From: Sinosporangium album
GTDB taxonomy: Bacteria; Actinomycetota; Actinomycetes; Streptosporangiales; Streptosporangiaceae
Assembly: GCF_900100605.1 (NCBI RefSeq)
Contig: NZ_FNCN01000001.1
Location: 124,001 to 188,000 of the forward strand
Reading direction: 5' to 3'
DNA length: 64,000 nt
Shown: positions 19,091-43,889 of the stretch, in pieces
Position numbering within the stretch: the stretch's first letter is position 1
Layout of the letters: the number at the start of each line of letters is the position of its first letter
Program-made: the position numbers and the translations under genes
Notes under the pieces: generated by a model
The model's database searches: none
Told to the model about the DNA's origin: nothing
The model's input: the letters and a program-made list of their open reading frames with translations, nothing else

Positions 19091-19684
19091 CATGGCAGTC
19101 CCCGCAGAACCGCGGCCCCGGCTCATCCGCGAGCCCGCCGCACACCCCCGGCACCCACACCCGCTCAACCGGCGAAGAGTCGGCCGCGGCCGGGGTCCGC
19201 GGCCCGTATCCCTCCAGATCGACCTAGGGTAAGCGCCACCAGCTACCCGTATTCCTGACGAGCGACACGGTGGAACGCCATCCACCACGCACATCCTTGG
19301 CCTCGCAGCCAGTTCGCTCAGGGTGAGCGGCCGGCAGTACTCGGAGCCGGCCGTGGCGAACAGCCCACCCCACGGCCCACAGACACGGCCCACAGACACG
19401 GCCCACAGACACGAGCCACAGACACGGCCCACCAATACGGCCCACTGACACGGCCTGATCCTCGCCGCTGAACAACCGCCGCGAGGTCCACGTGCTGCCG
19501 TTCACCGACGGGCAAGGGGCCACACCAACGAAGCTTGTTAACACCGTCAACGTAAGATCTATGTCGCAGACACCTACCTCCGTGTACTCTTTCGAAGGCG
19601 CAGTGCTCTCCTCACGTGCACTATGGGAAGCCTGTCACTCACTGTTGGCTTCAAACGCCTTCCGCGGGCTGGGGAGAATGAGGA
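19091..19684. other. Intergenic region upstream of the defence operon
   Basis: About 590 nt with no convincing gene. It holds a small dyad gccgcgg/ccgcggc (19183-19203) that may terminate the DoxX-like gene, a 13-bp tandem repeat array, and a relatively AT-rich stretch at about 19530-19600 that probably contains the operon promoter. I could not assign a clear -35/-10 pair. Confidence 0.6.
19371..19455. repeat. 13-bp tandem repeat array upstream of the defence operon
   Basis: About six and a half units of cacggcccacaga. The first three are perfect and the later ones drift (cacgagccacaga, cacggcccaccaa, tacggcccactga). It ends about 230 nt before the kinase-helicase start. There are no spacers between units, so it is not CRISPR. 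Confidence 0.85.
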
Positions 19685-22600
19685 GTGCTCGTGAGCCTGG
19701 ACTTGGTGGCGAATCGGTTCCGACTCCTGGGTGCCATCGCCAGGGGCAACATGGGGGAAGTGCACCGCGCCGAGGATCTTCAAGCGGATGAGGATGCCGC
19801 AGACGGCACGGTGGCGGTGAAGTTGATTCTGCGCAGCCACTCCCACGCGAACAGCCCATGGGACGCGTCTTCCAAGGCCGTCCGGCGGTTCGAGCGCGAG
19901 GTGCGCATCATGCGTCGGCTCCGGCACCCCAACCTTCCGCGCATCGTCGCCGGGGGTGTGGATGCCGCGAACGGCGGCCTGCCGTATCTCGCGATGGAGT
20001 TCCTCGACGGCCGCACCTTGAGCGACCTCATGGCCGAACAGCCGCGTCCGCCCGTTCCCTGGGCCGCGGCCCTCGGCGCACAGATGGCGGACGGCCTGGC
20101 CGCAGCCCACGCCACTGGGGTCATTCACCGAGATCTCAAGCCCGCCAATGCGATGGTGCTGCGAGGAGGCGTGGTCAAGGTCCTCGACTTCGGGCTGGGG
20201 CGGATCCTGGATGATGCGGAGAGGGACCGCGTGACGAGCACCGGCGTCTCGGTCGGCACCGCGCGTTACAGTGCGCCCGAGCAGTTCCTGGCCGCGACGG
20301 TGACCCAGGCGGCCGACCTGTATGCCCTCGGCTGCGTGCTCTACGAACTCCTCACCGGTGTTCCGCCATTCCACAGCGAGTCCGCTCACGAGCTGGGCCA
20401 AAAGCACCTGCACGAGGCGGTGCCCCCCATCCGGCTGCTGCGTTCCGACGTGCCGGGCGACATGGCGAGGCTCGTCGAGCGGATGCTCGCGAAGGACCCC
20501 GTCGACCGGCCGGAGGACGCCGTCGCCGTCCGCGCGGCGCTGCTTCCGTTCGCGGTCGGCGCGGAGAGGGTCGCCGGGTGGGAGGAGTTCGACCCTGTCC
20601 GTCCTCTGTCGGTCGCGGAGCACACCGGTCCGCGCGCGCAGGTGCCCCAGGTACGACCGGTCAGGGTCGGCATGGACGTCTTCGACGTACACCGGCGGCT
20701 CATCGCCGACTACCGGGCCTTCACCGAAGGCGGCACGATCATCCGCGACGAGGCCATCTCGGCGTACGTCGAGGACGATTTGAACGCGAAGTCCCAATGG
20801 CCGGACCCCTGGGTGTCGCTCAACCCGTTCTTCGCCTCGGGCGGCACCGTTTTGGAGCTTACGGCCGAGGGCGTCCTTCACCCGGAGTGCGCGCGCATCT
20901 TCCAGGCCGGCAAGACCGAACGCGGCACCGTGTGCGACGGACGTCCTCTCACGCTCCACCGCCACCAGCGCGACGCGATCGACACGGCCCGGTCGGGCGC
21001 GTCCTACGTGCTCACCACCGGCACAGGCTCGGGAAAGTCGCTTTCCTACATCGTGCCCATCGTCGACAAGGTGCTGAGGGATCGGGAGATCGAAGGGCCC
21101 AAAGCCCGCAAACGGGTCCGGGCGATCATCGTCTATCCGATGAACGCGCTCGCCAACAGCCAACTCAAGGAACTCGACAAGTATCTCCGCGACGGCTACG
21201 GGCCCGGCCGCGAACCGGTCACCTATGCGAGATACACCGGCCAGGAGAACGACGAGCGCCGCAGGCAGATCCGCGACAATCCTCCGGACATCCTGCTCAC
21301 CAACTACGTGATGCTGGAACTGATGCTTACGCGTCCCGACGACCGGCGCTCCCTCATCAAGATGGCCAAGGGCCTTGAGTTCCTCGTCTTCGACGAGCTC
21401 CACACCTATCGCGGCCGACAGGGCGCCGATGTGGCCTTGCTGATCCGCCGGGTGCGTGAGGCCTGCCAGGCGACGAGCCTGCAGTGCGTGGGCACGTCCG
21501 CGACCATGTCGACCGAGGGCACCTCTGAAGACCGGCGCGCAGTCGTCTCCCATGTCGCAGGCACCCTTTTCGGGGTCGAAGTCCACCCCTCCAACGTCAT
21601 CGGCGAGACGCTCGTACGCGCCACCGACGAGTCTCCGGACACCGTGCCGACCGACAGGCTTCGCACCACCGGCGCCCCACGCGCCTACGCCGACCTGGTG
21701 AAGGACCCTCTGGCCCGCTGGATCGAGACACGTTTCGGGCTCGCCACCGACCCGACAGGGCGGCTCGTACGGCAGAAGCCCGCCAAGATCGAGGAGGCGG
21801 CGGCGGAACTCGCCGCGTTGACCGGCGTGGACGAGACCGTATGCGTCGACTCGATCCGCAGCACCCTCAAGGCGGGCTCCGAGGCCAGACATCCCGTCAC
21901 CGAGCGTCCCCTGTTCGCCTTCCGGCTGCATCAGTTCCTCTCCAAGGGCGACACCGTCTACGTCACCCTGGAGGACAAGGCGCAACGTCATCTGACCCGC
22001 GACTACCAGCTGGTCCACCCCGGCTCGGACGGCAAGATCCTCCTGCCGCTGGCCTTCTGCCGGGAGTGCGGCCAGGAATACATGACGGTGTGGCGGACGG
22101 AGAAGCACGGCGCCATCGCTTATGAGCCCCGTCGCGACACCGCGGCCACCGGTGGCCGAGCGGGGGACGGCTATCTCTATGTCGACCCCGACCGCCCCTG
22201 GCCACGCACACCGGAGGAGGCGGTGGCCGACCGCCGCGTCCCCGAGTCATGGCTGGAGATCGACGGCAGCGGGCACGAGATCGTGCGCGCGTCCTTCCGG
22301 ACGAGACTGCCGAGCGCCGTCACCGTGGACCCTTACGGAGTCGAAGGGCGGGGTGAGCTCAAGGCCGCCTTCATCCCCTCCCCCTTCCTGTTCTGCCTGC
22401 ATTGCGGTGTGAGTTATGAACAGACCAGGGGCCGCGATTTCGCCAAGCTCGCCACCCTGGACCAGGAGGGCCGCTCGTCGGCGACCTCCCTGGTGTCGGC
22501 GTCGATCGTCAGGTCGCTCAAAGCCGCCCCCGCCGAAGCGCTCGACAGGAAGGCGCGCAAGCTTCTGACCTTCGTCGACAATCGGCAGGACGCCTCCCTG

Positions 22601-25600
22601 CAGGCCGGTCACTTCAATGACTTCGTGCAGATCACGCAGTTGCGCGGCGCTCTCTACCAGGCCGCGGTGGCGGCGGGAGCCCGCGGCATCACGCATGAGG
22701 AGCTCGCCTCCCGCGTCGCCGAAGCCCTGGGCCTTGAGCTCGCCGACTACGCGGGCGCGTCGGACCTGCCTCCTTCCATGGCCCGCAACGCGGCCAAGAC
22801 TCTGCGCGATGTCATCGCCTTCCGCCTCTATCTCGATCTCGAACGGGGCTGGCGCATCACGATGCCGAACCTGGAGCAGACCGGTCTGCTTGAGATCCAC
22901 TACGAGGACCTCGAGTGGCTCGCCGAGCAGCCGGACCGGTGGTCGGGCACGCATGCGGCGCTGCGTGACGCCGCGCCGGGCCAGCGCGCGGAGATCACGC
23001 GTGTGCTGCTCGACGAGATGCGCCGGGCCCTCGCCATCGACGTGCAGTACTTCCGCGAGGACTTCGACACTATTCAGCGCGCCAGTGAGGAGCGCCTCAT
23101 CGACCCATGGGTGCTGTCCGCCGGCGACCGTCCCAAGGTCGGCACCGCTTATCCGCAGCCGTCCCGACCGGGTCTCGACCGTTCGGGACTGTTCCTCTCC
23201 GGACGCGGAAAGTTCGGGAAGTATCTCCGGCGTGTGCACTTCGGCGACGCCGATCTGTCTCCCGACGACACTCAATCGATCATCGTTGACCTCTTGAAGG
23301 TCCTCGCCAAGGCCGGTCTGGTCAAAGAGATCACGGCGGCGCCGCAGCGGGCGGGCAGGTTCAGGGGCCCGGCAGGACCGTCGGTGACGGGCTACCGCGT
23401 CTCGGCGGCCTCTCTCATCTGGCGGGCCGGAACAGGTGAGACCGGCACTCACGACCCTCTCACCCGCACCTACGCCAGCGGCGACGGTCCCCGGGTCAAC
23501 ACGTTCTTCCGTGACCTTTACCGGAACGCCGCGGGCACTCTCGCCGGTCTGTCCGCGCGGGAGCACACGGCCCAGGTCGCCCCCGAGGAGCGGGAAAAGC
23601 GCGAGGAGGCCTTCCGCAAGGCCGAGCTGAAGCTGCTCTACTGCTCGCCCACGATGGAACTGGGCGTCGACATCTCCGAGCTCAACGCCGTCATGATGCG
23701 CAACGTCCCGCCCACGCCCGCGAACTACGCGCAGCGCAGCGGACGTGCCGGAAGATCTGGGCAGCCCGCGCTGGTCACCACGTACTGCGCCACCGGCAAC
23801 AGCCACGACCAGTACTACTTCCGCCGTTCCGCACGCATGGTCACGGGCGCCGTCGTGCCACCCCGTCTCGACCTCGCCAATGAAGACCTCGTGCGGTCCC
23901 ATATCCAAGCCATCTGGCTCGCCGAGACCGGACTGAGACTCGGCCGCACCCTCCCTCAGGTCATCGACATCGGCTATCTGGAGGACACGCAGCGTCCCGA
24001 CCCCCCTCTCGCCCTGCAAGACGACGTCGCCGCCGCCCTGCGCAATGCCGGCGCGCAGGTCCGTGCCGTAGCGGCCGCCCGCCAGGTCTTCGAAGGTCTG
24101 CTCGCCGCGTTCGCGACGACCACATGGTGGGACGACCAATGGATCGAGGACCAGGTCCGTACGGCTCCTGAGCGTTTCGACCGGGCCTTCGACCGCTGGC
24201 GCGGTCTGTTCAGGGCCGCGCTTGTCGACCAGGCCGAGCAGAACCGCCGTGTCCTCGACCACACGCTCTCGGAACGCGACCGCAGGATCGCCGCCGGTCG
24301 CCGCAAAGAGGCCGAAACCCAGCTCAACCTCCTCAAAAACGAGAGTGTGGACAGCAAGTCGGTCCTCTCCGACTTCAACCCCTACCGCTACCTCGCCAGC
24401 GAGGGATTCCTCCCCGGTTACTCCTTCCCGCGGCTGCCGCTCGCCGCCTACATCCCGATGTCGGGCCGACGGTCCGGCGACGGCGACTACCTCCAGCGTC
24501 CGCGCTTCCTGGCCATCCGCGAGTTCGGACCCGGCGCCCTCATCTATCACGAGGGTGCCCGCTACCAGGTCACACGCATCCAACTACCCCCCGACGGAGC
24601 GGGTGACGTCGTCACCACCGACGCCCGCAGATGCACCGCCTGCGGCTACCACCACGACACCCGCGACCGCGCCGACCGCTGCGAGATGTGCGACGAGCCG
24701 TTGCTGGACACGACCTACGGACTCCTCCAGCTGCACACCGTCTACACCATGCGCCGCGAACGGATCTCCTCCGACGAGGAGGAGCGCCGCCGGGCGGGTT
24801 TCCGTCTGGTGACCTCCTACCGCTTCCACGACCACGGCACGCGGCCCGGCCGCCAGGACGCCCTCGTCTCCGACGGCACGGGCGCACTGGCCACCCTCTC
24901 CTACGGCGATTCGGCGACCGTCCGCATCACCAATGCCGGGCGGGTGCGCGCCAAGCCAGACGAACCCGACGGGTTCTGGCTCGATCCCGCCGACGGGCGC
25001 TGGATGAACGAGCGGGAGGCCGGCGAGGCGTCAGGGGATTCGAGCGAGATGCCGGTGGTCGACGCCGACGGCAATGAGAGGCGCCACAAGAAGCGTGTCA
25101 TTCCGTACGTCGAGGACCGCCGCAACATTCTGGTGGTCAAGCTGAACGAGCCGCTGCCGGAGCCGACCGCCTTGTCGCTGATGTACGCGCTGGAACGCGG
25201 CATCGAGGCCGCCTTCGAACTGGAGGACTCTGAGTTGAGCGGCGAACTGCTGCCGCCGGAGGACGGGCCCCGCGACCGGATGCTGTTCACCGAGGCCGCG
25301 GAGGGAGGCGCCGGTGTGCTGCGGCTCATGCAGTCCGAACCGGACGCGTTCGCCCGTGCCGCGGCCGAGGCGCTGGCCATCTGCCACTTCGACGCCGACG
25401 GTGCGGACCTCGGCGGCCCGCATCCCGATCGCCCGTGCGCCCTGGGCTGCTACGAGTGTCTGCTCACCTACGGCAACCAGCTCAACCACGCCTTCGTCGA
25501 CCGCCACTCGGTACGCGACCTGCTGCTTCGGATCGCAGGCTCGAAGACCCAGACGACCGGGCGGGGCGAATCCCGCTCGGAGCAGATGACGCGTTTGACC

Positions 25601-25921
25601 GAGCAGTCGGACACGTTGCTGGAAGGCAGGCTCGTCACCTGGCTCAAGGAGCGCGGTCTGCGCCTGCCCGACGAGGCGCAGACCTTCGTCACCGAGGCGC
25701 TCGCCCGGCCCGACTTCGTCTACCGGCTGCCCGGAGTCAACGTGGCGGTCTTCGTCGACGGCCCGGTCCACGACCACGCCGTGGTGGCCATGCGTGACCG
25801 CGACGCCGAGGAGCGGCTGTTCGACATGGGCTGGGACGTGGTGCGCTTCCCCCACGACGCCGATTGGTCCGCCGTAGCCACGCGCTTCCAGCGGTATTTC
25901 GGATCAGGTGCGGGCATCTGA
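19685..25921 (+). CDS. Ser/Thr kinase-DExH helicase-DUF1998 fusion (defence)
   Basis: A 2078-residue fusion. Residues 1 to about 290 form a Hanks-type Ser/Thr kinase with VAVKL, HRDLKPAN (catalytic D at about 150) and DFG all present, although the glycine loop is degenerate. From about 430 a superfamily 2 helicase follows: TTGTGSGKS (Walker A, about 445), FDELHTY (DExH, about 570), VGTSATMS and RSGRAGRSG. CxxC pairs are scattered through the middle. The DUF1998 signature CALGCYECLLTYGNQ lies near 1920. The last 70 residues (PDFVYRL...VAVFVDGPVHD) resemble a Vsr/DUF559-like nuclease fold. Helicase plus DUF1998 recalls DISARM DrmA and DrmB, or the MrfA/Hrq1 family. It is first in the operon. 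GTG 19691, 5 nt after AGGAG, is an alternative start. Confidence 0.85.
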   Translation: MLVSLDLVANRFRLLGAIARGNMGEVHRAEDLQADEDAADGTVAVKLILRSHSHANSPWDASSKAVRRFEREVRIMRRLRHPNLPRIVAGGVDAANGGLPYLAMEFLDGRTLSDLMAEQPRPPVPWAAALGAQMADGLAAAHATGVIHRDLKPANAMVLRGGVVKVLDFGLGRILDDAERDRVTSTGVSVGTARYSAPEQFLAATVTQAADLYALGCVLYELLTGVPPFHSESAHELGQKHLHEAVPPIRLLRSDVPGDMARLVERMLAKDPVDRPEDAVAVRAALLPFAVGAERVAGWEEFDPVRPLSVAEHTGPRAQVPQVRPVRVGMDVFDVHRRLIADYRAFTEGGTIIRDEAISAYVEDDLNAKSQWPDPWVSLNPFFASGGTVLELTAEGVLHPECARIFQAGKTERGTVCDGRPLTLHRHQRDAIDTARSGASYVLTTGTGSGKSLSYIVPIVDKVLRDREIEGPKARKRVRAIIVYPMNALANSQLKELDKYLRDGYGPGREPVTYARYTGQENDERRRQIRDNPPDILLTNYVMLELMLTRPDDRRSLIKMAKGLEFLVFDELHTYRGRQGADVALLIRRVREACQATSLQCVGTSATMSTEGTSEDRRAVVSHVAGTLFGVEVHPSNVIGETLVRATDESPDTVPTDRLRTTGAPRAYADLVKDPLARWIETRFGLATDPTGRLVRQKPAKIEEAAAELAALTGVDETVCVDSIRSTLKAGSEARHPVTERPLFAFRLHQFLSKGDTVYVTLEDKAQRHLTRDYQLVHPGSDGKILLPLAFCRECGQEYMTVWRTEKHGAIAYEPRRDTAATGGRAGDGYLYVDPDRPWPRTPEEAVADRRVPESWLEIDGSGHEIVRASFRTRLPSAVTVDPYGVEGRGELKAAFIPSPFLFCLHCGVSYEQTRGRDFAKLATLDQEGRSSATSLVSASIVRSLKAAPAEALDRKARKLLTFVDNRQDASLQAGHFNDFVQITQLRGALYQAAVAAGARGITHEELASRVAEALGLELADYAGASDLPPSMARNAAKTLRDVIAFRLYLDLERGWRITMPNLEQTGLLEIHYEDLEWLAEQPDRWSGTHAALRDAAPGQRAEITRVLLDEMRRALAIDVQYFREDFDTIQRASEERLIDPWVLSAGDRPKVGTAYPQPSRPGLDRSGLFLSGRGKFGKYLRRVHFGDADLSPDDTQSIIVDLLKVLAKAGLVKEITAAPQRAGRFRGPAGPSVTGYRVSAASLIWRAGTGETGTHDPLTRTYASGDGPRVNTFFRDLYRNAAGTLAGLSAREHTAQVAPEEREKREEAFRKAELKLLYCSPTMELGVDISELNAVMMRNVPPTPANYAQRSGRAGRSGQPALVTTYCATGNSHDQYYFRRSARMVTGAVVPPRLDLANEDLVRSHIQAIWLAETGLRLGRTLPQVIDIGYLEDTQRPDPPLALQDDVAAALRNAGAQVRAVAAARQVFEGLLAAFATTTWWDDQWIEDQVRTAPERFDRAFDRWRGLFRAALVDQAEQNRRVLDHTLSERDRRIAAGRRKEAETQLNLLKNESVDSKSVLSDFNPYRYLASEGFLPGYSFPRLPLAAYIPMSGRRSGDGDYLQRPRFLAIREFGPGALIYHEGARYQVTRIQLPPDGAGDVVTTDARRCTACGYHHDTRDRADRCEMCDEPLLDTTYGLLQLHTVYTMRRERISSDEEERRRAGFRLVTSYRFHDHGTRPGRQDALVSDGTGALATLSYGDSATVRITNAGRVRAKPDEPDGFWLDPADGRWMNEREAGEASGDSSEMPVVDADGNERRHKKRVIPYVEDRRNILVVKLNEPLPEPTALSLMYALERGIEAAFELEDSELSGELLPPEDGPRDRMLFTEAAEGGAGVLRLMQSEPDAFARAAAEALAICHFDADGADLGGPHPDRPCALGCYECLLTYGNQLNHAFVDRHSVRDLLLRIAGSKTQTTGRGESRSEQMTRLTEQSDTLLEGRLVTWLKERGLRLPDEAQTFVTEALARPDFVYRLPGVNVAVFVDGPVHDHAVVAMRDRDAEERLFDMGWDVVRFPHDADWSAVATRFQRYFGSGAGI

Positions 25922-26016: not shown

Positions 26017-28950
26017 ATGACGACCGCCTACACTCCAGGGTCCCTGGTCTCGGCACGTGGCCGCGACTGGGTGGTGCTGCCCGACAGCGCCCCCGACATG
26101 CTCGTCCTGCGTCCCCTCGGCGGAGCCGACGACGACATCGCCGCGGTCTTCCCCGCCTTCGAAACGGTCGAGAGCGCCGAGTTCGCGCCCCCTTCAGCGG
26201 CCGACCTCGGCGACGCCCACGCGGCCGGCCTGCTCCGTTCGGCCCTGCGCATCGGTTTCCGCTCCGGCGCGGGACCGTTCCGCTCACTCGCCGGCATCGC
26301 CGTCGAACCCCGCGCCTACCAGCTCGTCCCGCTCATGATGGCGCTGCGTCACCGGACCGTGCGCCTGCTGATCTCCGACGACGTCGGCATCGGCAAGACC
26401 GTCGAAGCGGGTCTCATCGCCAGTGAGCTGCTCGCCCAGGGCAGCGCTACGGGCGTCGCCGTACTCTGCTCCCCCGCGCTCGCCGAGCAGTGGCAGGAGG
26501 AGCTGCGCACCAAGTTCGGCATAGACGCCGAGTTGGTGCTCGCTTCCACGGTCTCGAAACTCGAACGAGGGTTGGACCTCGGCCAGTCCCTCTTCGACAA
26601 GCACCCTCACGTGGTGGTCTCCACAGATTTCATCAAGTCCACCCGCCACCGCGATGACTTCGTACGGCACTGCCCCGACCTGGTCATCGTCGACGAGGCC
26701 CACACCTGCGTCGCGGCCGACGAAGGCAGCTCGACGCAGAACAGCTCAGCACAGAACAGCTCAGCGCAGAACCAACTGCGCTACGAGCTGCTTCAACGCA
26801 TCGCCGCCGACGAGGACCGCCATCTACTCCTGGTGACCGCGACCCCGCACAGCGGCAAGACGGCGGCCTTCCGCAACCTCCTCGGCCTACTGAAGCCGGA
26901 GTTCGCCACGATCGACACGAACGGCAGAGCCGGGCGCACCTTGCTCGCCCGGCATTTCGTGCAGCGGCGCCGCGCCGACATCCGCAAATACCTTGATGAG
27001 GAGACCGAGTTCCCCGAGGACCGGCACTTCAAGGACGAGACGTACAAGCTCTCCCCCGCCTACCGCGCGCTGCTCGACGACGCCATCGCTTATGCGAGCG
27101 AGCGGGTCAGCGCCGCGGGGGAGCACGGCAGGCGTGAGAGCCGGATCGCGTGGTGGTCGGCGATCGCGCTGCTGCGTTCTCTGGTCTCCTCGCCGCGTGC
27201 CGCCGCCCAGACGCTGCGCACCCGGTCGGCGACCGCGACGGCGGCCACCGCCGAGGAGGCCGACAGGCTCGGCGCTCCCCTGACCGGCGATTCCTCCGAC
27301 AGCGACACCTTGGAGGGCTTGGACGTCGCTCCCGGCGCGGAGACCGGCGACGCCGGCGGGCGGCTCGCCGAACTCGCCGACCGGGCCGCCATGCTGGAAG
27401 GCCCGGCCGGGGACCTGAAACTGGCCGCTCTCATCAAGCACGTGAAGGCCCTGGTCAAGGACGGCTACCACCCGATCGTGTTCTGCCGCTACATCCCGAC
27501 CGCCGAATACGTCGCCGAGCACGTGGACGGCAAACTCGGCAAGAACACCGTCGTCCGTGCCGTCACCGGCACGCTCTCCCCGCAGCAGCGGCTCCAGCGC
27601 ATCGAGGAGCTCGCCGCCGAGGCGGGCGAGGACACCGCGGCCCGCCGCGTCCTCATCGCCACCGACTGCCTCTCCGAAGGCGTCAACCTGCAACACCACT
27701 TCGACGCCGTCGTCCACTACGACCTGGCGTGGAACCCGACGCGCCACGATCAGCGCGAGGGCCGCGTCGACCGCTACGGCCAGAAGAAGGACGCCGTCCG
27801 CGTGATCACCCTGTACGGCAGCGACAACGGCATCGACGGCAAGGTGCTCGACGTCCTCATCAAAAAGCACCGCCAGATCCGCAGGGACCTCGGCATCTCC
27901 GTCTCCGTTCCCGACGCCTCCTCCTCCGGGGTGACCGACGCGATCGTCGAATGGCTGCTCATGCGCGGCAGCCGAGGCGACCAGGAGACCCTCTTCGGCG
28001 TCGAGGAGATCGAAGGGCTCAACGCCAAGGCCGCCGAGCTTGAGGCGGAGTGGAACTCCACCGCCGACCGGGAGAAGCAGTCGCGGTCCCTGTTCGCGCA
28101 GAACACCGTCCGTCCGGAGGAGGTGGAGCCCGAGGTCGCGGCCGTACGCGACGCCCTCGGCGGGGCGGCCGAGATCCGCGACTTCGTCCGCCACGCCCTC
28201 GGCGCGCTGGGCGGAGTCCTGCGTGAGGAGCCTGATGGACTGGGTGACTTCAGCGCCGAGGTGAGCGGCGGACCCGTGGGCCTGCGCGACGCCCTCGCTC
28301 CGGTCCTCGGCGGCGACACCGTGGAGCTGGGCCGCCCCGTCCCGTTCCGTAGGACGGCGGCGGTGGCACGCGGCGAAGCCGCGTTGGTGCGCACCGATCC
28401 GGTGGTCGCCGCTCTCGCCGGTTATGTGCTCAACACCGCGCTTGACCTCCGGGCTCCCGGCCCCCGCCCGGCCCGGCGTTGCGGGGTCGTCCGTACGAGA
28501 TCCGTCGAACGCCGCACCACGCTGCTCCTGGTCCGCTACCGCTTCCACCTCACCCTTCCCTCGCGTTCGGGCGAACGGCAGCTCATCGCCGAGGACGCCC
28601 GCCTGACCGCCTTCGAAGGCTCCCCCGCGAGCGCCGTATGGCTGCCGGCCGAGGAGGCCGCGAAGCTGCTCGATGTGAAGGCCGACGAGAACACCGACCC
28701 CGACTTCGGCGAGCGCACGATGGACCGTGTGCTCGACGGCCTGTACGGCACCGCCCCGCACCTTGAGGCCTACGGCGAAGAGCTGGCGGCCGAGCTGCTC
28801 GCCTCCCACCGCCGGGTCCGCAGCGCCTCCGGCGAGATCGTCCGCGGTGTGAACGTCACCGTGCAGAAACCCGCCGACATCCTCGGCGTCTACATCTACC
28901 TGCCGGTGTCCGGCTCCGCCACCCCCCTCGCCGCCGGAGGAACCCTCTGA
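26017..28950 (+). CDS. drmD: DISARM-type SNF2-like helicase DrmD
   Basis: A 977-residue SNF2-family helicase/translocase. Visible motifs are LLISDDVGIGKTVEAGLIA (Walker A, about residue 122), LVIVDEAHTC (DEAH, about 226), LLVTATPHSG, and the C-terminal RecA lobe with ATDCLSEGVNLQ and DQREGRVDRYGQ. The run AVLCSPALAEQWQEEL and VVVSTDFIKSTRHRDDF match DrmD proteins of class 1 DISARM, where this helicase accompanies an adenine methylase. An SSTQN/SSAQN repeat at 26728-26772 sits between motifs II and III. GAGG precedes ATG 26017. The stop overlaps the methylase start by 1 nt, so the two are translationally coupled. Confidence 0.85.
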   Translation: MTTAYTPGSLVSARGRDWVVLPDSAPDMLVLRPLGGADDDIAAVFPAFETVESAEFAPPSAADLGDAHAAGLLRSALRIGFRSGAGPFRSLAGIAVEPRAYQLVPLMMALRHRTVRLLISDDVGIGKTVEAGLIASELLAQGSATGVAVLCSPALAEQWQEELRTKFGIDAELVLASTVSKLERGLDLGQSLFDKHPHVVVSTDFIKSTRHRDDFVRHCPDLVIVDEAHTCVAADEGSSTQNSSAQNSSAQNQLRYELLQRIAADEDRHLLLVTATPHSGKTAAFRNLLGLLKPEFATIDTNGRAGRTLLARHFVQRRRADIRKYLDEETEFPEDRHFKDETYKLSPAYRALLDDAIAYASERVSAAGEHGRRESRIAWWSAIALLRSLVSSPRAAAQTLRTRSATATAATAEEADRLGAPLTGDSSDSDTLEGLDVAPGAETGDAGGRLAELADRAAMLEGPAGDLKLAALIKHVKALVKDGYHPIVFCRYIPTAEYVAEHVDGKLGKNTVVRAVTGTLSPQQRLQRIEELAAEAGEDTAARRVLIATDCLSEGVNLQHHFDAVVHYDLAWNPTRHDQREGRVDRYGQKKDAVRVITLYGSDNGIDGKVLDVLIKKHRQIRRDLGISVSVPDASSSGVTDAIVEWLLMRGSRGDQETLFGVEEIEGLNAKAAELEAEWNSTADREKQSRSLFAQNTVRPEEVEPEVAAVRDALGGAAEIRDFVRHALGALGGVLREEPDGLGDFSAEVSGGPVGLRDALAPVLGGDTVELGRPVPFRRTAAVARGEAALVRTDPVVAALAGYVLNTALDLRAPGPRPARRCGVVRTRSVERRTTLLLVRYRFHLTLPSRSGERQLIAEDARLTAFEGSPASAVWLPAEEAAKLLDVKADENTDPDFGERTMDRVLDGLYGTAPHLEAYGEELAAELLASHRRVRSASGEIVRGVNVTVQKPADILGVYIYLPVSGSATPLAAGGTL

Positions 28951-31900
28951 TGTCCGCCCCCGCCCGCGCCCAGGTCTTCTCCGCCGTCCACACCGTCGGC
29001 GGCCTCATCCCCGCCGACATGCTGATCCGCATCTCCGAAGGCAAGGACGTCCACGGGGCCAAACCCGCCGACTACCGCGTCATCGGGCCGCGTTCCGTGC
29101 GTGACGAGGCCGAACGCCACTGGGACTACCTGAAGTCCATCTGGCGCGAGCTGCGCCGCAGTCTGCCGGCCGTCCCGGAGGCCGAGACCCCCGCCGACCC
29201 CACGGGACTCGCCGTCACGCAGTGGCTCGAACCGCTCTTCGGTGAGCTCGGCTTCGGCCGCCTCACGGCCATCGGAGCGACCGGCATCGCGGCCGACGGC
29301 GGAGGCAAGACCTTCCCGGTGAGCCACCGCTGGAATCACGTCCCCCTGCACCTGACCGCCTGGAACGCGGCACTCGACAGGCGCTCGGGCGGTGCCGTAC
29401 CCCCGCAGTCGCTCGTCCAGGAATGCCTCAACCGCACCGAGGCGCACCTGTGGGGCGTCCTCACCAACGGCCGCAGGCTCCGGCTGCTGCGGGACTCCAG
29501 CGCGCTGGCCACCGCCTCCTACGTCGAGTTCGACCTGGAGGCCATCTTCGACGGGGAGCTTTTCAGTGACTTCGTCCTGCTGTATCGGCTGCTTCACGTC
29601 TCCCGCTTCGACGTGGCCGAGGGTGCGCCGCCGTCGTCGTGCTGGCTGGAGAAATGGCGCACCGACGCCATCGCGTCCGGCACGAGGGCCTTGGAGAGCC
29701 ACCGCGACGGTGTGCAGAAGGCGATCACCAGGCTCGGCACCGGATTCCTCAAGCATCCCGCCAACGCCGAGCTGCGCAGAAACCTCGACGTCCACGCCTT
29801 CCACGCCGCCCTCCTGCGTCTCGTATACCGGCTGATCTTCCTTTTCGTCACCGAAGACCGCGACGCGCTCCACCCGCCCGCCACGGATGAGAAGACCCGC
29901 AGGCGCTACGCCGAATACTTCTCCTCCGCTCGACTGCGCGGCCAGGCCGCCCGCCGCCAAGGCACCGCCCACACCGACCTGTACCAGGCCCTGCACATCG
30001 TCCTCGACGCGCTCGGAGACGAGCGCGGGAGGCCGGAACTGGGGCTGCCGGGACTCGGCGGCCTCTTCGACGACACCGCCGCCGACGCGCCCCTGCACGG
30101 CCTGTCCCTCTCGAACGCCTACCTGCTGGACGCGGTACGCCACCTCTCCCGGGTCCGCGACCACGACTCCGGTCGCTGGCGGCAGGTGGACTACCGCAAC
30201 ATGGGCTCGGAGGAACTCGGCTCCGTCTACGAGTCGCTCCTCGAACTCGTGCCCAAGCACAGCGCCGTCGACAGCACCTTCGAACTCGTCAACCGCCTCG
30301 GCAACGACCGCAAGAAGACCGGCTCCTACTACACGCCGAGCTCCCTGATCGAGACCCTGCTCGACTCCACCCTCGACCCCGTCATCGACGACGCGCAGAA
30401 ACGCGGCGAGCAGAAGGCGACGGCGGCCGGGCAGCCCGACGCGACGGACACAGTCGTCTCCGAGCTGCTGGCCCTCACCGTCTGCGACCCGGCCTGCGGC
30501 TCCGGCCACTTCCTCGTCGCCGCCGCCCGCCGGATCGCCAAGCGGGTCGCCGCCGTGCGCGAAAGCAACCCCGAGCCCACCCTCGGCGCGGTCCGCCACG
30601 CCCTGCACGAGGTCGTCGCCCGCTGCGTGTACGGCGTCGACCTCAACCCCATGGCCGTCGAACTCGCCAAGGTCTCCCTGTGGCTCGAAGCCTTGGAGCC
30701 CGGAAAACCCCTCGGTTTCCTCGACGCCCACATCAAACACGGCAACGGGCTGATCGGCGCGACACCGGCACTGCTCCGGGAAGGCATCCCCAACAAGGCG
30801 TTCAAGCCCGTCGAAGGCGACGACCCGAAGTACGCGACGTTCCTTGAGAAGCAGAACAACCAGGAACTCGCCGGACAAGGCGGGCTGTTCGACCTGGACG
30901 AGGGGACGAAGGTGGCCAACACCGCCTTCGCCGCCGACCTGCGCCGCATCACAGCCGCCCCCGCCGACACCCTCGGCGACGTCCACCGCCAAGCCTCGGC
31001 CTACCGCACCTGGGAGACCTCCGCCGCCTACCTCCACGCCCTCCACGCGGCGGACGCCTGGTGCGCGGCCTTCATGTGGCACAAGACCAAGGACGCCCCG
31101 CCCGCGATCACCCACGACGTCTTCCGCGCCCTCCAGAACCCCGAAGGCAGCGGCGCCTCACAGGCCACCCACGACGAGATCGTACGGCTCCGCGAACAGT
31201 TCCGCTTCTTCCACTGGCACCTGGCCTTCCCCGACGTCTTCACCGTGCCCGACGGCGACGCCGGCGGCGCCGACATCGACCCCGCCACGGGTTGGGCCGG
31301 CGGCTTCTCCTGCGTCCTCGGCAACCCGCCGTGGGACAAGGTCGACTTCGAGGACAAGAAGTATTTCAGCGTGGTCGAGCCTCGCATCGCCGCGATAGCC
31401 GGTACGGCACGGCGCACGCGAATCGCCGAATGGGTCGAGGAGAATCCAGACGCGGGTCAGTGGTATCACGCCGAACGCCGCAAGGTGAAAGCCACCTTCC
31501 ACTTCGCCGGCAAGTCCGGGTCTTTTCCTCGTTGCCAAGAGGGTCTTAGCGCCAAGGGAGTCAACTCCCTATTCGTCGATCACCTTTTCACAGAACGCTT
31601 CTCCGAGATCGTCGCCCACAAGGGCCGTTTTGGATGCATCGTCCAAACTTCCATCGCCACAGGAGCAGGAGCACAGAATCTTTTCAGCGACCTGAGCCGA
31701 CGTGGCGCTATTTCCTTTTTTTATGATTTCGAGAACCGCAAGCCGCTTTTCGTTGGAGTGGACTCTCGATACAAGTTCTGCCTGCTGTCCATGACAGGGC
31801 GGGCACTACGTGAACCGACAGCTAGGTTCGCGTTCTTCCTTGAGGACACAATCGACCTCGACGACAGCGAGCGTCTCTTTACACTCAACCCGAAAGATAT

Positions 31901-33104
31901 TTCCCTCATAAATCCAAATACCGGCACACTACCCATCTTTCGCACCCGCCGCGATGCTGACCTCACCGCCGCAATTCATCGCCGAGTTCCGATTCTCTGG
32001 AACGAAGCCGAAGCGGATGGGAACCCCTGGGGAATCCACTTTAAGAATCTATTCAACACGACAGACGATTCCGATCTCTTTCAAACCCGGGATGACCTCG
32101 AATCCGACGGCTGGGAGCTTGACGGGAACTCCTTCAGTCGCAACAGGGAGCGGATGCTACCGCTCTACGATGGCAAGATGGCTCATCACTTCGACCACCG
32201 CTGGAACTCCTACTGCGGCACAGGAAATGAAGAATACCGACGCGTGGCACCTTCCGATAAACAAAACCCCGCAACTACAGCTGGGCCGCGCTACTGGATT
32301 AAGGAAGAGGGATTTATTCGCACCGAGAGGAAAAAACAGGAGGTAGAAGTTCCCGGCGTTGCCGAGCGCCTTAAAAAGCTGAACTGGAACCGAGGATGGC
32401 TTTGCGGTTGGCGTGATGTCTGCCGCACCACCGATGAGCGCACAGCCCTTCCAGCATTCATTCCACGTGCCGCCGTGGTAGAGAAGTTCCCACTGATGTT
32501 TCCACGGGTAGCACCAGCCCTCACCTCTGCCCTAATCGCCACACAGAGTTCCTTGGTTTTTGACTATCTGAGTCGCCAGAAGGTTGGCGGTATAAGCATG
32601 GCGCTGTTCGTCTGGAAACAACTCCCAGTCCCCACTCCCGACATGCTGGACCCCCACACCTCCTTTATCACCCCCCGTGTCCTCGAACTCGTCTACACCG
32701 CCTACGACATGGCCCCACTCGCGCGTGACCTGGGCGACCCCGCCGAGGCCCAGCCCTTCCGGTGGGACGAGGAGCGCCGGGCCCAGATCCGCGCCGAGCT
32801 GGACGCCTACTTCTTCCACCTCTACGGCATCTCCCGCGACGACACGGATTACATCCTGGAGACCTTCCAGACCGAGAGCGGCGGCCTCAAGAACAATGAG
32901 ATCGCCAAATACGGCACCTACCGCACCAAGGACCTCGTCCTTGCGGAGTACGACCGGATGTCGCCGGCCGGGGTGGGCCTGGCGGTCCCGCTCACCGACG
33001 GGGAGAGCTTCGTCTCCACGCTCAACCCGCCGCCGGGCCGCGGCCCCCGGCATGACCCGGCTCCGGCCGTACCGGGAAGCCCGCTGGAAGGCGAGGGTGT
33101 CTAG
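28950..33104 (+). CDS. Eco57I-type N6-adenine DNA methylase (DrmMI-like)
   Basis: A 1384-residue DNA adenine methyltransferase. The SAM site is CDPACGSGHFLVAAA (about 513) and the catalytic motif IV is VLGNPPWDKV (about N792). The C-terminal part should contain the target-recognition domain. Size and position after drmD fit the class 1 DISARM methylase DrmMI, which marks host DNA as self. PglX-like BREX methylases are the main alternative, but no pglZ or other BREX gene is present. From about 31500 to 32640 base composition drops sharply compared with both flanks. ATG 28950 overlaps the drmD TGA by 1 nt, and the stop overlaps the next GTG by 1 nt. Confidence 0.88.
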   Translation: MSAPARAQVFSAVHTVGGLIPADMLIRISEGKDVHGAKPADYRVIGPRSVRDEAERHWDYLKSIWRELRRSLPAVPEAETPADPTGLAVTQWLEPLFGELGFGRLTAIGATGIAADGGGKTFPVSHRWNHVPLHLTAWNAALDRRSGGAVPPQSLVQECLNRTEAHLWGVLTNGRRLRLLRDSSALATASYVEFDLEAIFDGELFSDFVLLYRLLHVSRFDVAEGAPPSSCWLEKWRTDAIASGTRALESHRDGVQKAITRLGTGFLKHPANAELRRNLDVHAFHAALLRLVYRLIFLFVTEDRDALHPPATDEKTRRRYAEYFSSARLRGQAARRQGTAHTDLYQALHIVLDALGDERGRPELGLPGLGGLFDDTAADAPLHGLSLSNAYLLDAVRHLSRVRDHDSGRWRQVDYRNMGSEELGSVYESLLELVPKHSAVDSTFELVNRLGNDRKKTGSYYTPSSLIETLLDSTLDPVIDDAQKRGEQKATAAGQPDATDTVVSELLALTVCDPACGSGHFLVAAARRIAKRVAAVRESNPEPTLGAVRHALHEVVARCVYGVDLNPMAVELAKVSLWLEALEPGKPLGFLDAHIKHGNGLIGATPALLREGIPNKAFKPVEGDDPKYATFLEKQNNQELAGQGGLFDLDEGTKVANTAFAADLRRITAAPADTLGDVHRQASAYRTWETSAAYLHALHAADAWCAAFMWHKTKDAPPAITHDVFRALQNPEGSGASQATHDEIVRLREQFRFFHWHLAFPDVFTVPDGDAGGADIDPATGWAGGFSCVLGNPPWDKVDFEDKKYFSVVEPRIAAIAGTARRTRIAEWVEENPDAGQWYHAERRKVKATFHFAGKSGSFPRCQEGLSAKGVNSLFVDHLFTERFSEIVAHKGRFGCIVQTSIATGAGAQNLFSDLSRRGAISFFYDFENRKPLFVGVDSRYKFCLLSMTGRALREPTARFAFFLEDTIDLDDSERLFTLNPKDISLINPNTGTLPIFRTRRDADLTAAIHRRVPILWNEAEADGNPWGIHFKNLFNTTDDSDLFQTRDDLESDGWELDGNSFSRNRERMLPLYDGKMAHHFDHRWNSYCGTGNEEYRRVAPSDKQNPATTAGPRYWIKEEGFIRTERKKQEVEVPGVAERLKKLNWNRGWLCGWRDVCRTTDERTALPAFIPRAAVVEKFPLMFPRVAPALTSALIATQSSLVFDYLSRQKVGGISMALFVWKQLPVPTPDMLDPHTSFITPRVLELVYTAYDMAPLARDLGDPAEAQPFRWDEERRAQIRAELDAYFFHLYGISRDDTDYILETFQTESGGLKNNEIAKYGTYRTKDLVLAEYDRMSPAGVGLAVPLTDGESFVSTLNPPPGRGPRHDPAPAVPGSPLEGEGV

Positions 33105-34957
33105 TGGCCGAGGTCTATCCCGAGTTCTGGATCCGCCTGCCGCATGGGGGACCTGCCGGGCGTGGGCGGCTGCTGGAGGAGAAGGGGAGGAACGGCAGCC
33201 AGAAGTTCCTGGTGAGGGGCGGGTCGCCGGTCCGGCCGGAGGGCGTTCCGTCGTTTCCGGCGCGGATGCCGTCTTCATTCGCGCTGCGGGAGCAGCTGAT
33301 CGCGGACGGCTCGATTGTGGAGTCCACGACGTGGCCGGGCTATTTGGAGACGGCCCGAAACGTCGTCTGCAATTCTCCGTCCGCCGCCGCCGGGATGCTG
33401 ATCGGCCGCAGTTCGAACGGGTGGCTGGAGTGGAAGACGGACGACGGGAGGCCGCTCGCCGACTTCGTGGCACAGGTGTGGTCGGGGCCCAACCGCACGT
33501 GGCTGGTCCGCGGGTCGAATGTGTCGGGGCTTGACCTGGTCCAGGGCTTGTGGCTTCCCGAGGGGCGGGTGAGTGTGGCCGCGGGCCGCCTGCGTGAGGG
33601 GGCGCGGCAGGGCATGTCCAAGGACCGGCTGCGCGGCTTCGTGGAGGAGGACTACCAGGCGACGGCGACGTATGGCCAGAGGCTGCATTTGATCGAGGAG
33701 TTTCACGCCTTCCTGTCGCGGATGAAGCCGGGTGACACGGTGTGCACGATCTCCGGCGGTCGGCTCCACATCGGGACGATCACCGGTGAGGCCGAGCAGG
33801 TCGCCTCCCAGGACGGGCGGTCGAACCTGCGGCGGCCGGTGGAGTGGCAGAGCATCGGCTACGCCTTTGACGATCTGCCAGAGGCGCTTCAGCAGAAGCT
33901 GTCGGTCCAGCATGACGTGGTCGATCTCACCTCGGTTCAGGCACTGGTGGCGGGGCTCGGGCTCAGCGACGACGAGTTGGCCGACGAGGCGGAGGGGGCC
34001 GGAGACGCGGCGAGTGCGGAGATGGCGGCGCTCGTGGCGCGCCGCGAGTTGGAGCTGCCGGAGCCGACGCAGGAGCTCGCGGACGAGCTTCTGGTGCACG
34101 ACGTGGAGTGGCTGCGCGAGGTGCGCGACCTGCTGTGGGACGAGCGCCAGCTCGTGCTGTACGGCCCGCCGGGCACCGGCAAGACGTATCTCGCGCTGAA
34201 GCTGGCCGAGTTTCTCGGCGGCGGCCCCGAACAGGTGAAACTCGTCCAGTTTCACCCTTCTTACGCCTATGAGGATTTCTTCGAGGGATTCCGTCCTCAA
34301 GAGGCGCCAGAGACCAGGGAGGTCGCCTTTCGACTCACGGCGGGACCGCTACGCGAGCTCGCCGACCTCGCCTCTCGCGAAGGCAACCGGCACATCCCCT
34401 ATTTCCTCATCATCGATGAGATCAACCGCGCCAATCTGGCCAAGGTCTTCGGCGAGCTGTACTTCCTGCTGGAATACCGCAACAGGTCGGTGCGCCTCAC
34501 ATACTCCGGCGAGGACTTCGCGCTGCCGCCGAACCTGTTCGTCATCGGCACCATGAACACGGCCGACCGCTCGATCGCGCTCGTGGACGCCGCGATGCGC
34601 CGCCGTTTCGCGTTCGTGGAGCTGTCGCCTCGGACGGAGCCGACCAGCGGACTGCTCCGGCGATGGCTCACCCGCCAAGGGCGCGACGCCGACCCCGCGG
34701 AGCTCCTCGACGCTTTGAACTCGCGCATCGGCGACCCGGATTTCCGCGTCGGCCCCTCGTATCTGATGAAGAAGGGGGTCTACCGCGACGGCGGACTCGA
34801 ACGCACGTGGCGCACCAAGATCCTCCCCCTGCTCGAAGAGCACCACTACGGGGACGACGTGGACGTCGCGCGGCGCTACGGCCTTCCCGCACTGCGGGCC
34901 GCCCTCGCCGCGACTCCGCCGGCCGACGCGTCGGCCGGCGCGTCCGGCCGGCCATGA
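33104..34957 (+). CDS. mcrB: McrB-type AAA+ GTPase with DUF4357-like N-terminus
   Basis: A 617-residue motor subunit of an McrBC-type restriction enzyme. The AAA+ core has LYGPPGTGKTYLALKL (Walker A, about 355), FLIIDEINRANLAKVFGELY (Walker B), and the McrB signature IGTMNTADRSIALVDAAMRRRF. The N-terminal 150 residues contain SPSAAAGMLIGRSSNGWLEWK, which matches DUF4357-type domains rather than the EcoMcrB 5-methylcytosine binder, so the recognised modification may differ. GTG 33104 overlaps the methylase stop by 1 nt, and the mcrC start overlaps its TGA by ATGA. Confidence 0.9.
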   Translation: MAEVYPEFWIRLPHGGPAGRGRLLEEKGRNGSQKFLVRGGSPVRPEGVPSFPARMPSSFALREQLIADGSIVESTTWPGYLETARNVVCNSPSAAAGMLIGRSSNGWLEWKTDDGRPLADFVAQVWSGPNRTWLVRGSNVSGLDLVQGLWLPEGRVSVAAGRLREGARQGMSKDRLRGFVEEDYQATATYGQRLHLIEEFHAFLSRMKPGDTVCTISGGRLHIGTITGEAEQVASQDGRSNLRRPVEWQSIGYAFDDLPEALQQKLSVQHDVVDLTSVQALVAGLGLSDDELADEAEGAGDAASAEMAALVARRELELPEPTQELADELLVHDVEWLREVRDLLWDERQLVLYGPPGTGKTYLALKLAEFLGGGPEQVKLVQFHPSYAYEDFFEGFRPQEAPETREVAFRLTAGPLRELADLASREGNRHIPYFLIIDEINRANLAKVFGELYFLLEYRNRSVRLTYSGEDFALPPNLFVIGTMNTADRSIALVDAAMRRRFAFVELSPRTEPTSGLLRRWLTRQGRDADPAELLDALNSRIGDPDFRVGPSYLMKKGVYRDGGLERTWRTKILPLLEEHHYGDDVDVARRYGLPALRAALAATPPADASAGASGRP

Positions 34958-36165
34958 CGGGCGGCACAGTCGTCGAGCTCGCCGAGCACGGCGCGGCCAT
35001 CACGGTCCCGCTCGACGACGCCACCGGCCGAGCCCTCGCGGCCTCCCGGATCGTCGAGGCGGCACCCGACCCGTTTCTCGCGGGGCGGTGGCGCGTGAAG
35101 GCCGGGGGCAGAGTCGGTGCGGCGGCGGTCGGCGTGCCGGGCGGCGCGACGGTCACCGTGCGGATCACGCCCAAGCTGCCGATCGCGCGGCTCCTGTTCC
35201 TCCTCGGCTACGGGCTCAACGCCAAAGGGTGGCGGGACGAGGATGTGCGGCTCGATGAGGAGTCGGAACTGCTGCCCGCCTTCGCCCGGCTCTTCGAACG
35301 GCAGGCTCACCGCGCGCTGCGCCAGGGGCTGGTCCAGGGCTACCGCACCACCGAGGAGACCTCCTTGGTGGTGCGAGGCCGGATCCGGGAGGCCGACCAG
35401 GTCCGCAGGCACCGGGGCGGACTCGTCCCCGTGGAGGTCGTCCACGACGACTACACCACCGACATCGCCGAGAACAGGCTGCTGCGTACGGCGTGCGAAC
35501 GGCTCTGCCGACTGCCTTCCGGCATCCCCCACGACGTGCGCGGCAGGCTGCTTCGACTGCGGGTGCGACTGGCGGACGTCACGCCGATAGGCCGTGGACA
35601 TGAACCGCCGGTATGGCGGCCGAACAGGCTCAACGCGCGCTACCACACGGCTCTGCGCGTGGCCGAGCTGGTGCTTCGAGGGGCGTCCGTCGAGCATCGG
35701 GCCGGGGATGTGGCTGTGAGCGGGTTCCTGTTCGACATGGCCAAGGTCTTCGAGGACTTCGTCACCGCCGCCCTGCGCGAAGCACTCGGCGGGAGCCGCC
35801 GCGTGGCCTTGCAGGCCGCTCACCACCTCGACGAACACGACGCGATCCGCGTGATCCCCGATCTCGTGATGTATGCCGACGACGGCACACCGCTCGCCGT
35901 GGCCGACGCGAAGTACAAAGCCGAGAAGCGCGAGGGGGTTCCCGACGCCGACCTCTATCAGATGCTCGCCTACTGTACGGCGCTCAACCTGCGGGAGGGC
36001 CATCTCGTGTACGCCAAGGGGAACGCGGCCCATGCCGTACACCAGGTGCGGCACTCCCCCATCGCGATCCACCGGCACGCGCTCGAACTCGACCAGCCTC
36101 CAGCAGGATTGCTCGCCGACGTGCGTGTTCTCGCCCGGCGGCTCGCCGCGACTCCGGCGGTATGA
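34954..36165 (+). CDS. mcrC: McrC-type nuclease subunit
   Basis: A 403-residue partner of McrB. The N-terminal McrC region (VRITPKLPIARLLFLLGYG) is followed by a helical part and a C-terminal PD-(D/E)xK nuclease: RVIPDLVMYADDG (D at about 302) and AVADAKYKAEK (D-A-K at about 318), so the catalytic residues look intact. McrBC complexes translocate along and cut modified foreign DNA. ATG 34954 overlaps the mcrB stop by 4 nt. The longer upstream frame beginning at 34663 lies over mcrB and was rejected. Confidence 0.9.
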   Translation: MTGGTVVELAEHGAAITVPLDDATGRALAASRIVEAAPDPFLAGRWRVKAGGRVGAAAVGVPGGATVTVRITPKLPIARLLFLLGYGLNAKGWRDEDVRLDEESELLPAFARLFERQAHRALRQGLVQGYRTTEETSLVVRGRIREADQVRRHRGGLVPVEVVHDDYTTDIAENRLLRTACERLCRLPSGIPHDVRGRLLRLRVRLADVTPIGRGHEPPVWRPNRLNARYHTALRVAELVLRGASVEHRAGDVAVSGFLFDMAKVFEDFVTAALREALGGSRRVALQAAHHLDEHDAIRVIPDLVMYADDGTPLAVADAKYKAEKREGVPDADLYQMLAYCTALNLREGHLVYAKGNAAHAVHQVRHSPIAIHRHALELDQPPAGLLADVRVLARRLAATPAV

Positions 36166-40065: not shown

Positions 40066-40190
40066 GGAGATAACAGTACACGGGCCACCCCTTGATCCCG
40101 AGGGTGAGGTGTATTGACAGCGTCAACATGAATGCCGCGGTAGGCAAACCCCGACTTAACCCCGCCCGGCCGCCTCGGCGCCGCTTGGCC

Positions 40191-43794: not shown

Positions 43795-43889
43795 GACTTC
43801 ATGATGCAATCATCGTGTCATCGAGGCAAGCTAAACGGCTAGGAGCATTGGCGGCTCGCCGGTTGAGGTGGAGGTCGGCAATCGTGATC

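What the first reader, a model, noticed from the sequence alone, without database searches (positions are those of the whole stretch)
19685..25921. Kinase-helicase-DUF1998-nuclease-like single polypeptide
One 2078-residue protein joins a complete-looking Hanks kinase (HRDLKPAN, DFG), a DExH helicase, a DUF1998 region with its cysteine signature, and a C-terminal stretch resembling a Vsr/DUF559 nuclease. DISARM splits the helicase and DUF1998 into two proteins and has no kinase. The kinase could sense infection and gate the helicase, much as PglW is a kinase in BREX type 2.
Basis: partly seen in the sequence, partly recalled or inferred. Interest (0 to 1): 0.8.

Follow-up and report, generated by a model that had tools for sequence, protein, structure and literature searches.

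The report
Kinase-fused ARMADA anti-phage helicase operon
A known family of bacterial anti-virus DNA helicase-nuclease systems (ARMADA type I) has, once in the actinomycetes, fused its main enzyme to an intact signalling protein kinase; many genera keep every catalytic residue of that kinase, which suggests that phosphorylation controls this defence.

Summary
One open frame (19685-25921 +) encodes, in order, a complete PknB-like Ser/Thr kinase, a YprA/MrfA-type DExH helicase, a DUF1998 zinc module and a probable Vsr/PD-(D/E)xK nuclease end. The comparison with DISARM misses the nearest relative: the helicase-DUF1998-Vsr chain followed by a BrxHII/DrmD-like helicase and a PglX-like methyltransferase is ARMADA type I, published in 2025 without mention of a kinase. 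What is new here is the kinase. In 92 distinct actinomycete copies it is fused at the same place. The fused proteins form one fully supported clade nested inside otherwise kinase-less ARMADA I. The fusion probably arose once; one clear loss is seen, and two members are undecidable at contig ends. Lys, Glu, HRD and DFG residues are invariant in 92/92, and dN/dS is low. No separate kinase lies next to kinase-less copies. Most likely the kinase regulates (licenses or restrains) the ARMADA restriction complex; substrate and trigger are unknown, and nothing was tested experimentally. A palindromic operator-like site upstream is largely specific to this clade. Verdict: real, a new variant of a known kind.

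The parts
19537..19551 (.). Operator-like palindrome GTTAACACCGTCAAC upstream of the operon; a -10-like TGTACT at 19583-19588 follows after 31 nt
   Evidence: Pattern found upstream of 52/92 fused operons, 1/35 unfused, 12/1840 random segments; two perfect sites in the 7.06 Mb genome; sequence. Regulator unknown.
19685..25921 (+). Kinase-ArmC fusion protein (2078 aa as read; start probably 19691, 2076 aa)
19703..20566 (+). Hanks-type Ser/Thr kinase, residues 7-294, PknA/PknB-like; K46, E72, D150, N155, D168 present
   Evidence: Pfam Pkinase 129 bits; model matches PknA/PknB with Z 28-30; catalytic residues invariant in 92/92 (N155 in 91/92)
20567..20671 (+). Variable tether, residues 295-329, between kinase and helicase
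   Evidence: Low-confidence stretch 314-326 in the model; sequences differ among homologs
20672..23794 (+). YprA-type SF2 helicase core with inserts, residues 330-1370: Walker A 446-452, DELH 570, SAT 605, CxxC at 792 and 904, QRSGRAGR 1350
25178..25462 (+). DUF1998 / MrfA zinc-binding module, residues 1832-1926
   Evidence: Pfam MZB 34 bits, 38 bits alone; model matches MrfA Z 12.0 and DrmB Z 9.5
25601..25909 (+). Probable Vsr-like PD-(D/E)xK nuclease, residues 1973-2075
   Evidence: Sub-threshold Vsr/DUF559 hits; Z 5.6-5.7 to PD-(D/E)xK cap-snatching endonucleases; conserved PD and D
26017..28950 (+). ArmA-like BrxHII/DrmD-type SNF2 helicase (977 aa)
   Evidence: PADLOC PDLC02853 1644 bits over its full length; DrmD 294 bits, below the 610 cut-off
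28950..33104 (+). ArmB-like PglX/DrmMI-type adenine methyltransferase (1384 aa), NPPW at 792
33104..34957 (+). McrB-like AAA GTPase with N-terminal DUF4357; accessory, in 17/80 fused loci
34954..36165 (+). McrC-like nuclease subunit (start inferred from an ATGA overlap; the listed ORF begins at 34663)
   Evidence: Pfam McrBC 192 bits; PD...DAK motif
36202..38340 (+). ArmD/GajB-like UvrD helicase (712 aa) with a 260-aa N-terminal extension; accessory, in 7/80 fused loci
38371..40065 (-). HTH + N6-methyltransferase-like protein with degenerate motif IV (CDPPV); a recurrent neighbour, near-operator at 40113-40127
   Evidence: Its membership in the system is uncertain.

Best explanation
This is an ARMADA type I anti-phage operon (ArmC-ArmA-ArmB order, here extended by McrBC and an ArmD-like helicase) whose ArmC helicase-nuclease carries a built-in Ser/Thr kinase. 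Shown here: architecture, operon, clade, conservation of the catalytic residues. Inferred from published relatives: ArmC loads on single-stranded or branched phage DNA, translocates, and cuts with its C-terminal nuclease, while the methyltransferase and second helicase contribute to self/non-self discrimination. Proposed and untested: when ArmC engages target DNA or a partner, the tethered kinase autophosphorylates and phosphorylates its own chain or ArmA/ArmB, switching the complex between restrained and active states. So the kinase is a regulatory add-on to a defence that works without it elsewhere. Confidence refers to the regulatory role; that this is kinase-fused ARMADA I I hold at about 0.93.
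For: Operon order C-A-B kept in kinase and kinase-less loci, as published for ARMADA I (PMC12458937). Tree: the kinase clade is nested in ARMADA I with support 1.0. Catalytic residues invariant in 92/92; kinase dN/dS about 0.07-0.30, like the helicase: phosphotransfer is selected. No kinase beside kinase-less copies, and one in-clade copy (L173) lacks it while ArmC stays intact: an add-on, not the core. The kinase is in cis on a variable tether with no sensor domain of its own, so the helicase or complex is the obvious source of input.
Against: No substrate, trigger or phenotype is known. Ser/Thr residues gained specifically by the fused clade in ArmA, ArmB or ArmC are not visibly enriched. 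The model gives no evidence of kinase-helicase docking (pTM 0.55). A kinase with other targets would look the same.
Confidence: 0.52

Rival explanations
1. The kinase is a second effector: ArmC recognises phage DNA, and the kinase then phosphorylates host or phage proteins (translation or replication factors) to arrest infection, as stand-alone defence kinases are thought to do.
For: PADLOC defence-kinase models (PD-T4-6, mad6) match the kinase well, though they are generic; the kinase is catalytically intact and no in-operon substrate signature was found.
Against: E. coli ARMADA II acts without growth arrest (PMC12458937); the kinase is absent from L173 and from all other ARMADA I examined.
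Confidence: 0.22
2. The kinase is an anti-counter-defence or guard part: it competes with, senses or reverses interference by phage kinases and inhibitors aimed at the helicase.
For: Phage kinases that disable host defences are reported (cited in PMC12904381).
Against: No direct evidence; strict catalytic conservation argues against a mere decoy.
Confidence: 0.08
3. The protein is a DISARM variant in which DrmA and DrmB merged and a kinase was added.
For: Shared neighbours with class 1 DISARM (DrmD-like, DrmMI-like).
Against: The helicase matches DruE models, not DrmA, among its best hits; it sits with ARMADA I, apart from DISARM, in the tree; ArmA scores 293 bits against the DrmD cut-off of 610, whereas a true DISARM in the same genome scores 1332.
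Confidence: 0.02
4. The operon serves DNA repair or stress response (MrfA-like) with DNA-damage signalling through the kinase, rather than phage defence.
For: MrfA is a repair helicase of the same family (PMC12458937).
Against: Methyltransferase, McrBC and GajB-like neighbours; patchy distribution, 40/200 genomes in the order with either form; DruE close by in one genome.
Confidence: 0.06

Closest known systems
ARMADA type I (Bell et al. 2025 preprint, PMC12458937)
   Same: [quoted passage not shown] association of such a cassette with McrBC reported.
   Different: N-terminal PknB-like kinase, not mentioned in that paper's main text (supplements not readable here); an ArmD-like helicase, which the paper assigns to type II, is also present.
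ARMADA type II (E. coli NCTC 12900, tested)
   Same: The four protein kinds ArmA, B, C, D all have counterparts here.
   Different: Gene order A-B-C-D; no kinase described; the one A-B-C-ordered locus at hand (L096) lies in another branch of the tree.
DISARM class 1
   Same: DrmD-like and DrmMI-like neighbours; YprA-family helicase and DUF1998.
   Different: DISARM has separate DrmA and DrmB genes and usually a PLD nuclease; a true DISARM lies about 250 kb away on the same contig.
Druantia III DruE
   Same: Closest scoring defence helicase models (335 bits), single chain with DUF1998.
   Different: A DruE from a relative scores 617 bits; Druantia III has DruH and PLD domains and no ArmA/ArmB.
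PglW (BREX type 2)
   Same: Large multidomain defence protein with an active Ser/Thr kinase.
   Different: PglW has a NERD nuclease plus tandem kinases and no helicase; PglW model 45 bits against a cut-off of 990.
M. tuberculosis PknA/PknB kinase domains
   Same: Fold, Z 27-30, 32-36% identity over about 255 residues.
   Different: No transmembrane or PASTA part; fused to a helicase.

Membership tests
ARMADA type I | YprA-family helicase and DUF1998 in one chain | tested here: met
   Pfam DEAD, Helicase_C and MZB in one frame; MrfA is the best structural match of the C-terminal model, Z 12.0
ARMADA type I | Gene order YprA - BrxHII-like helicase - PglX-like methyltransferase | tested here: met
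   ArmA in 79/80 and ArmB in 80/80 fused loci with enough flank
ARMADA type I | C-terminal predicted active Vsr-type nuclease | tested here: inconclusive
   Vsr 18 bits, under the cut-off of 27; conserved PD and D; Z 5.6-5.7 to PD-(D/E)xK enzymes
ARMADA type I | CxxC zinc-binding modules inserted in the RecA2 region | tested here: met
   CREC 792 and CLHC 904, cysteines invariant in 45 aligned sequences
ARMADA type I | BrxA-like helical insert after RecA1 | tested here: inconclusive
   A helical insert at 656-733 is modelled; no Pfam hit; the domain alone was not folded or searched
ARMADA type I | Position in the YprA tree apart from DISARM and Druantia | tested here: met
   (39 sequences, FastTree; own DISARM, own YprA and six DruE as references; no published ARMADA sequence could be included)
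ARMADA type I | Anti-phage activity | not testable with these tools
   needs plaque assays
DISARM class 1 | Helicase (DrmA) and DUF1998 (DrmB) in separate genes | tested here: not met
   single frame; contrast L214
DISARM class 1 | DrmD over the curated cut-off | tested here: not met
   294 bits against 610; true DrmD 1332 bits elsewhere in the genome
Druantia III | DruE with C-terminal PLD domains and a DruH partner | tested here: inconclusive
   No PLD hit in the chain; DruE model 335 bits against 617 for a DruE from a relative; DruH was not searched for specifically
BREX type 2 PglW | PglW equivalog over cut-off (NERD plus tandem kinases) | tested here: not met
   45 bits against 990
Active Hanks-type Ser/Thr kinase | Catalytic Lys, Glu, HRD Asp, Asn, DFG Asp and APE | tested here: met
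   present in the window and invariant in 92/92 homologs, Asn in 91/92; PknB fold Z 27-30
Active Hanks-type Ser/Thr kinase | Phosphotransfer activity | not testable with these tools
   needs an in vitro kinase assay

The most novel reading that the evidence does not exclude
A restriction-type anti-phage machine is gated by reversible protein phosphorylation in cis: DNA engagement by the helicase switches on a covalently attached eukaryote-type kinase, which then licenses the nuclease, methyltransferase or co-operonic McrBC. That would be a DNA-sensing kinase checkpoint in bacteria.
Probability: 0.25. Interest if true: 0.85.

Novelty: new variant of a known kind. Interest (0 to 1): 0.55.

Why it matters
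How large DNA-targeting defences such as DISARM, ARMADA and Druantia are kept from attacking the host is open. A clade in which evolution attached an intact kinase to the helicase-nuclease, beside a sister group without it and an in-clade loss, offers a clean natural comparison: point mutants in one residue ask whether phosphorylation controls restriction. It also extends ARMADA, tested so far (in the paper found here) only in E. coli, to many actinomycete genera including Streptomyces.

Tried and rejected
DISARM merger: rejected by scores, by the tree and by the separate true DISARM. Chance or antisense ORF: rejected. Pseudokinase: rejected, catalytic residues invariant. A kinase encoded next to kinase-less ARMADA: none found within the regions of up to 20 kb. 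Clade-specific Ser/Thr substrate sites: a few candidates (ArmC S370 and S1743, ArmA S548 and T667; positions approximate) but no visible enrichment over other residues, so no claim. Copies in phages or viral contigs: none with this query (only a 16% fragment in a Ruminococcus phage). The BrxA-like insert could not be shown: no Pfam hit, and structure matches were filled by kinases. The RelE-like N-terminus of the ArmD-like protein gave no Pfam match. The hypothesis that the HTH-methyltransferase is the regulator of the palindrome is not supported in general: 46 palindrome-bearing loci lack it nearby.
Full report
Observation. The open frame 19685-25921 (+) is real and continuous. It holds Pkinase (17-277), DEAD (426-610), Helicase_C (1288-1359) and MZB/DUF1998 (1832-1926), plus a weak Vsr/DUF559-like end. 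All canonical motifs are present. The likely start is the second GTG at 19691, judged from homologs and a GAGGAG site, so the protein has probably 2076 residues. Genes follow closely on the same strand: a DrmD/BrxHII-like helicase (26017-28950), a PglX/DrmMI-like methyltransferase with NPPW (28950-33104), McrB with DUF4357 (33104-34957), McrC (about 34954-36165) and a GajB/ArmD-like UvrD helicase (36202-38340).

What it is. A 2025 preprint (PMC12458937) describes ARMADA: a YprA helicase with zinc modules, OB-CON-DUF1998 and a C-terminal Vsr nuclease in one chain; in type I the gene order is generally YprA, BrxHII-like, PglX-like. That is this operon. The same genome carries a complete canonical DISARM (DrmD 1332 bits, DrmA 1384, DrmB 690) about 250 kb away on the same contig, an internal positive control: the window's second helicase gives only 293-294 bits against the DrmD cut-off of 610.

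What is new. The word kinase does not occur in the main text of that paper, and text searches found no kinase-YprA fusion elsewhere; the library is partial and supplements could not be read. In the window's order, 40 of 200 genomes have an ArmC match; the full-length matches fall into two groups, about 64-85% identity with frames near 2070-2370 aa, and lower identity (mostly 54-59%) with frames near 1700-1860 aa. Across 136 loci, 99 are kinase-fused, 92 after removing duplicates. They come from Streptomyces, Kitasatospora, Micromonospora, Nonomuraea, Actinomadura, Amycolatopsis, Saccharothrix, Lentzea, Pseudonocardia, Nocardiopsis, Nocardia, Saccharopolyspora and others. Kinase-less copies extend to other Actinomycetota, Deinococcus, Thermus and cyanobacteria, where matches nearly all start at residue 329-331, just after the kinase and tether.

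Evolution. A tree of the helicase parts puts all fused proteins in one clade, support 1.0, with three apparently unfused members: two end at a contig edge and one, L173 (Streptomyces sp. AC1-42W), is a true kinase loss with ArmC intact. A second tree with DruE, the own DISARM and own YprA places this clade inside ARMADA I, apart from DISARM and from Druantia; one locus with A-B-C gene order (L096), possibly ARMADA II, falls beside Druantia. No published ARMADA sequence was available to anchor the names. In the kinase, Lys46, Glu72, HRD, DFG and APE are invariant in 92/92 and Asn155 in 91/92. Pairwise dN/dS of the kinase is about 0.07-0.30, comparable to the helicase. No kinase match lies in the neighbourhood (regions of up to 20 kb) of any kinase-less locus.

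Structure. A model of residues 1-1199 (mean pLDDT 82.9, pTM 0.55) matches PknA/PknB over about residues 1-292 with Z 28-30 and rmsd 2.1-2.5 A for the best rows. The stretch 314-326 is low in confidence and variable, a tether. A model of 1180-2078 (mean pLDDT 73.5) matches MrfA (Z 12.0) and DrmB (Z 9.5); residues 1973-2075 match viral PD-(D/E)xK endonucleases weakly (Z 5.6-5.7). Domain packing is not resolved by these models.

Mechanism. From published relatives (DruE loading on single-stranded tails and cutting long DNA, PMC13192584; ARMADA II giving direct, non-abortive protection that needs the ArmA and ArmC Walker residues and the ArmB NPPW motif, PMC12458937) the core is most likely a DNA-translocating restriction complex. 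The kinase is an addition kept with full catalytic residues, absent from the rest of the family and lost once without loss of the operon. That pattern fits a regulator better than an essential effector. Direction (licensing or restraint), substrate and trigger are unknown. No clade-wide gain of Ser/Thr sites was found, so the substrate may be the kinase itself, a site shared with kinase-less relatives, or a host or phage protein.

Regulation. A palindrome GTTGAC-N3-GTCAAC (window GTTAACACCGTCAAC, 19537-19551) lies upstream of 52/92 fused operons, 1/35 unfused loci, that one being L173, and 12/1840 random segments of the same loci. In the window it ends 31 nt before a -10-like TGTACT, and other copies show similar spacing (inspection). 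In the genome there are two perfect sites only. The pattern was drawn from these same sequences, so the enrichment is descriptive. A one-mismatch copy (40113-40127) precedes the divergent HTH-methyltransferase-like gene, whose motif I is intact but motif IV reads CDPPV; similar sites precede some of its homologs.

Verdict. The architecture is confirmed, the family is known, and the kinase fusion is, as far as I could check, an undescribed and evolutionarily stable variant. I score interest 0.55.

Noticed in passing
window 19537-19551 and 40113-40127; upstream regions of L112, L146, L159, L176, L184 and others: Palindrome GTTGAC-N3-GTCAAC about 31 nt upstream of a -10-like TGTAC/TATAC in 52/92 kinase-ARMADA operons, nearly absent from kinase-less ones; an activator-like position. 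Regulator unknown.
   Followed up: partly
window 38371-40065 (-): HTH_17 + N6-methyltransferase-like protein with intact SAM motif (DPACGIG) but degenerate catalytic motif (CDPPV/A/P/T in close homologs); near 26/80 fused and 2/30 unfused loci. Possibly a SAM-binding regulator rather than a methylase.
   Followed up: partly
L214 1489-14672 (-), same contig as the window: Complete canonical DISARM (DrmD, DrmMI-like, DrmA, DrmB) in the same genome, about 250 kb from the kinase-ARMADA operon.
   Followed up: yes
L201 6067-10758 (+) and L053: In a Nocardiopsis genome a DruE (617 bits) lies roughly 8 kb from the kinase-ARMADA operon, echoing the reported Druantia-ARMADA islands.
   Followed up: partly
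window 42664-43809 (-): Fic-domain protein matching the SoFic defence model (139 bits) close to the ARMADA operon: the window looks like a defence island.
   Followed up: no
window 53997-57491 (+): 1164-aa protein with a subtilase-like match to a PADLOC model (58 bits).
   Followed up: no
window 26017-28950 (+): PADLOC model PDLC02853 labelled DpdE matches this ArmA-like helicase at 1644 bits over its full length, while other DpdE models score under 120 bits: the label is probably wrong and really denotes ARMADA ArmA.
   Followed up: partly
L110: A contig labelled Candidatus Melainabacteria carries a 76% identical kinase-ArmC; probably a mis-binned actinomycete contig.
   Followed up: no
L183:23375-24556, L127:14940-16202: In Streptomyces an EcsC-family gene (11 loci) or an uncharacterised gene (9 loci) follows directly after ArmB, in place of McrBC.
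   Followed up: no
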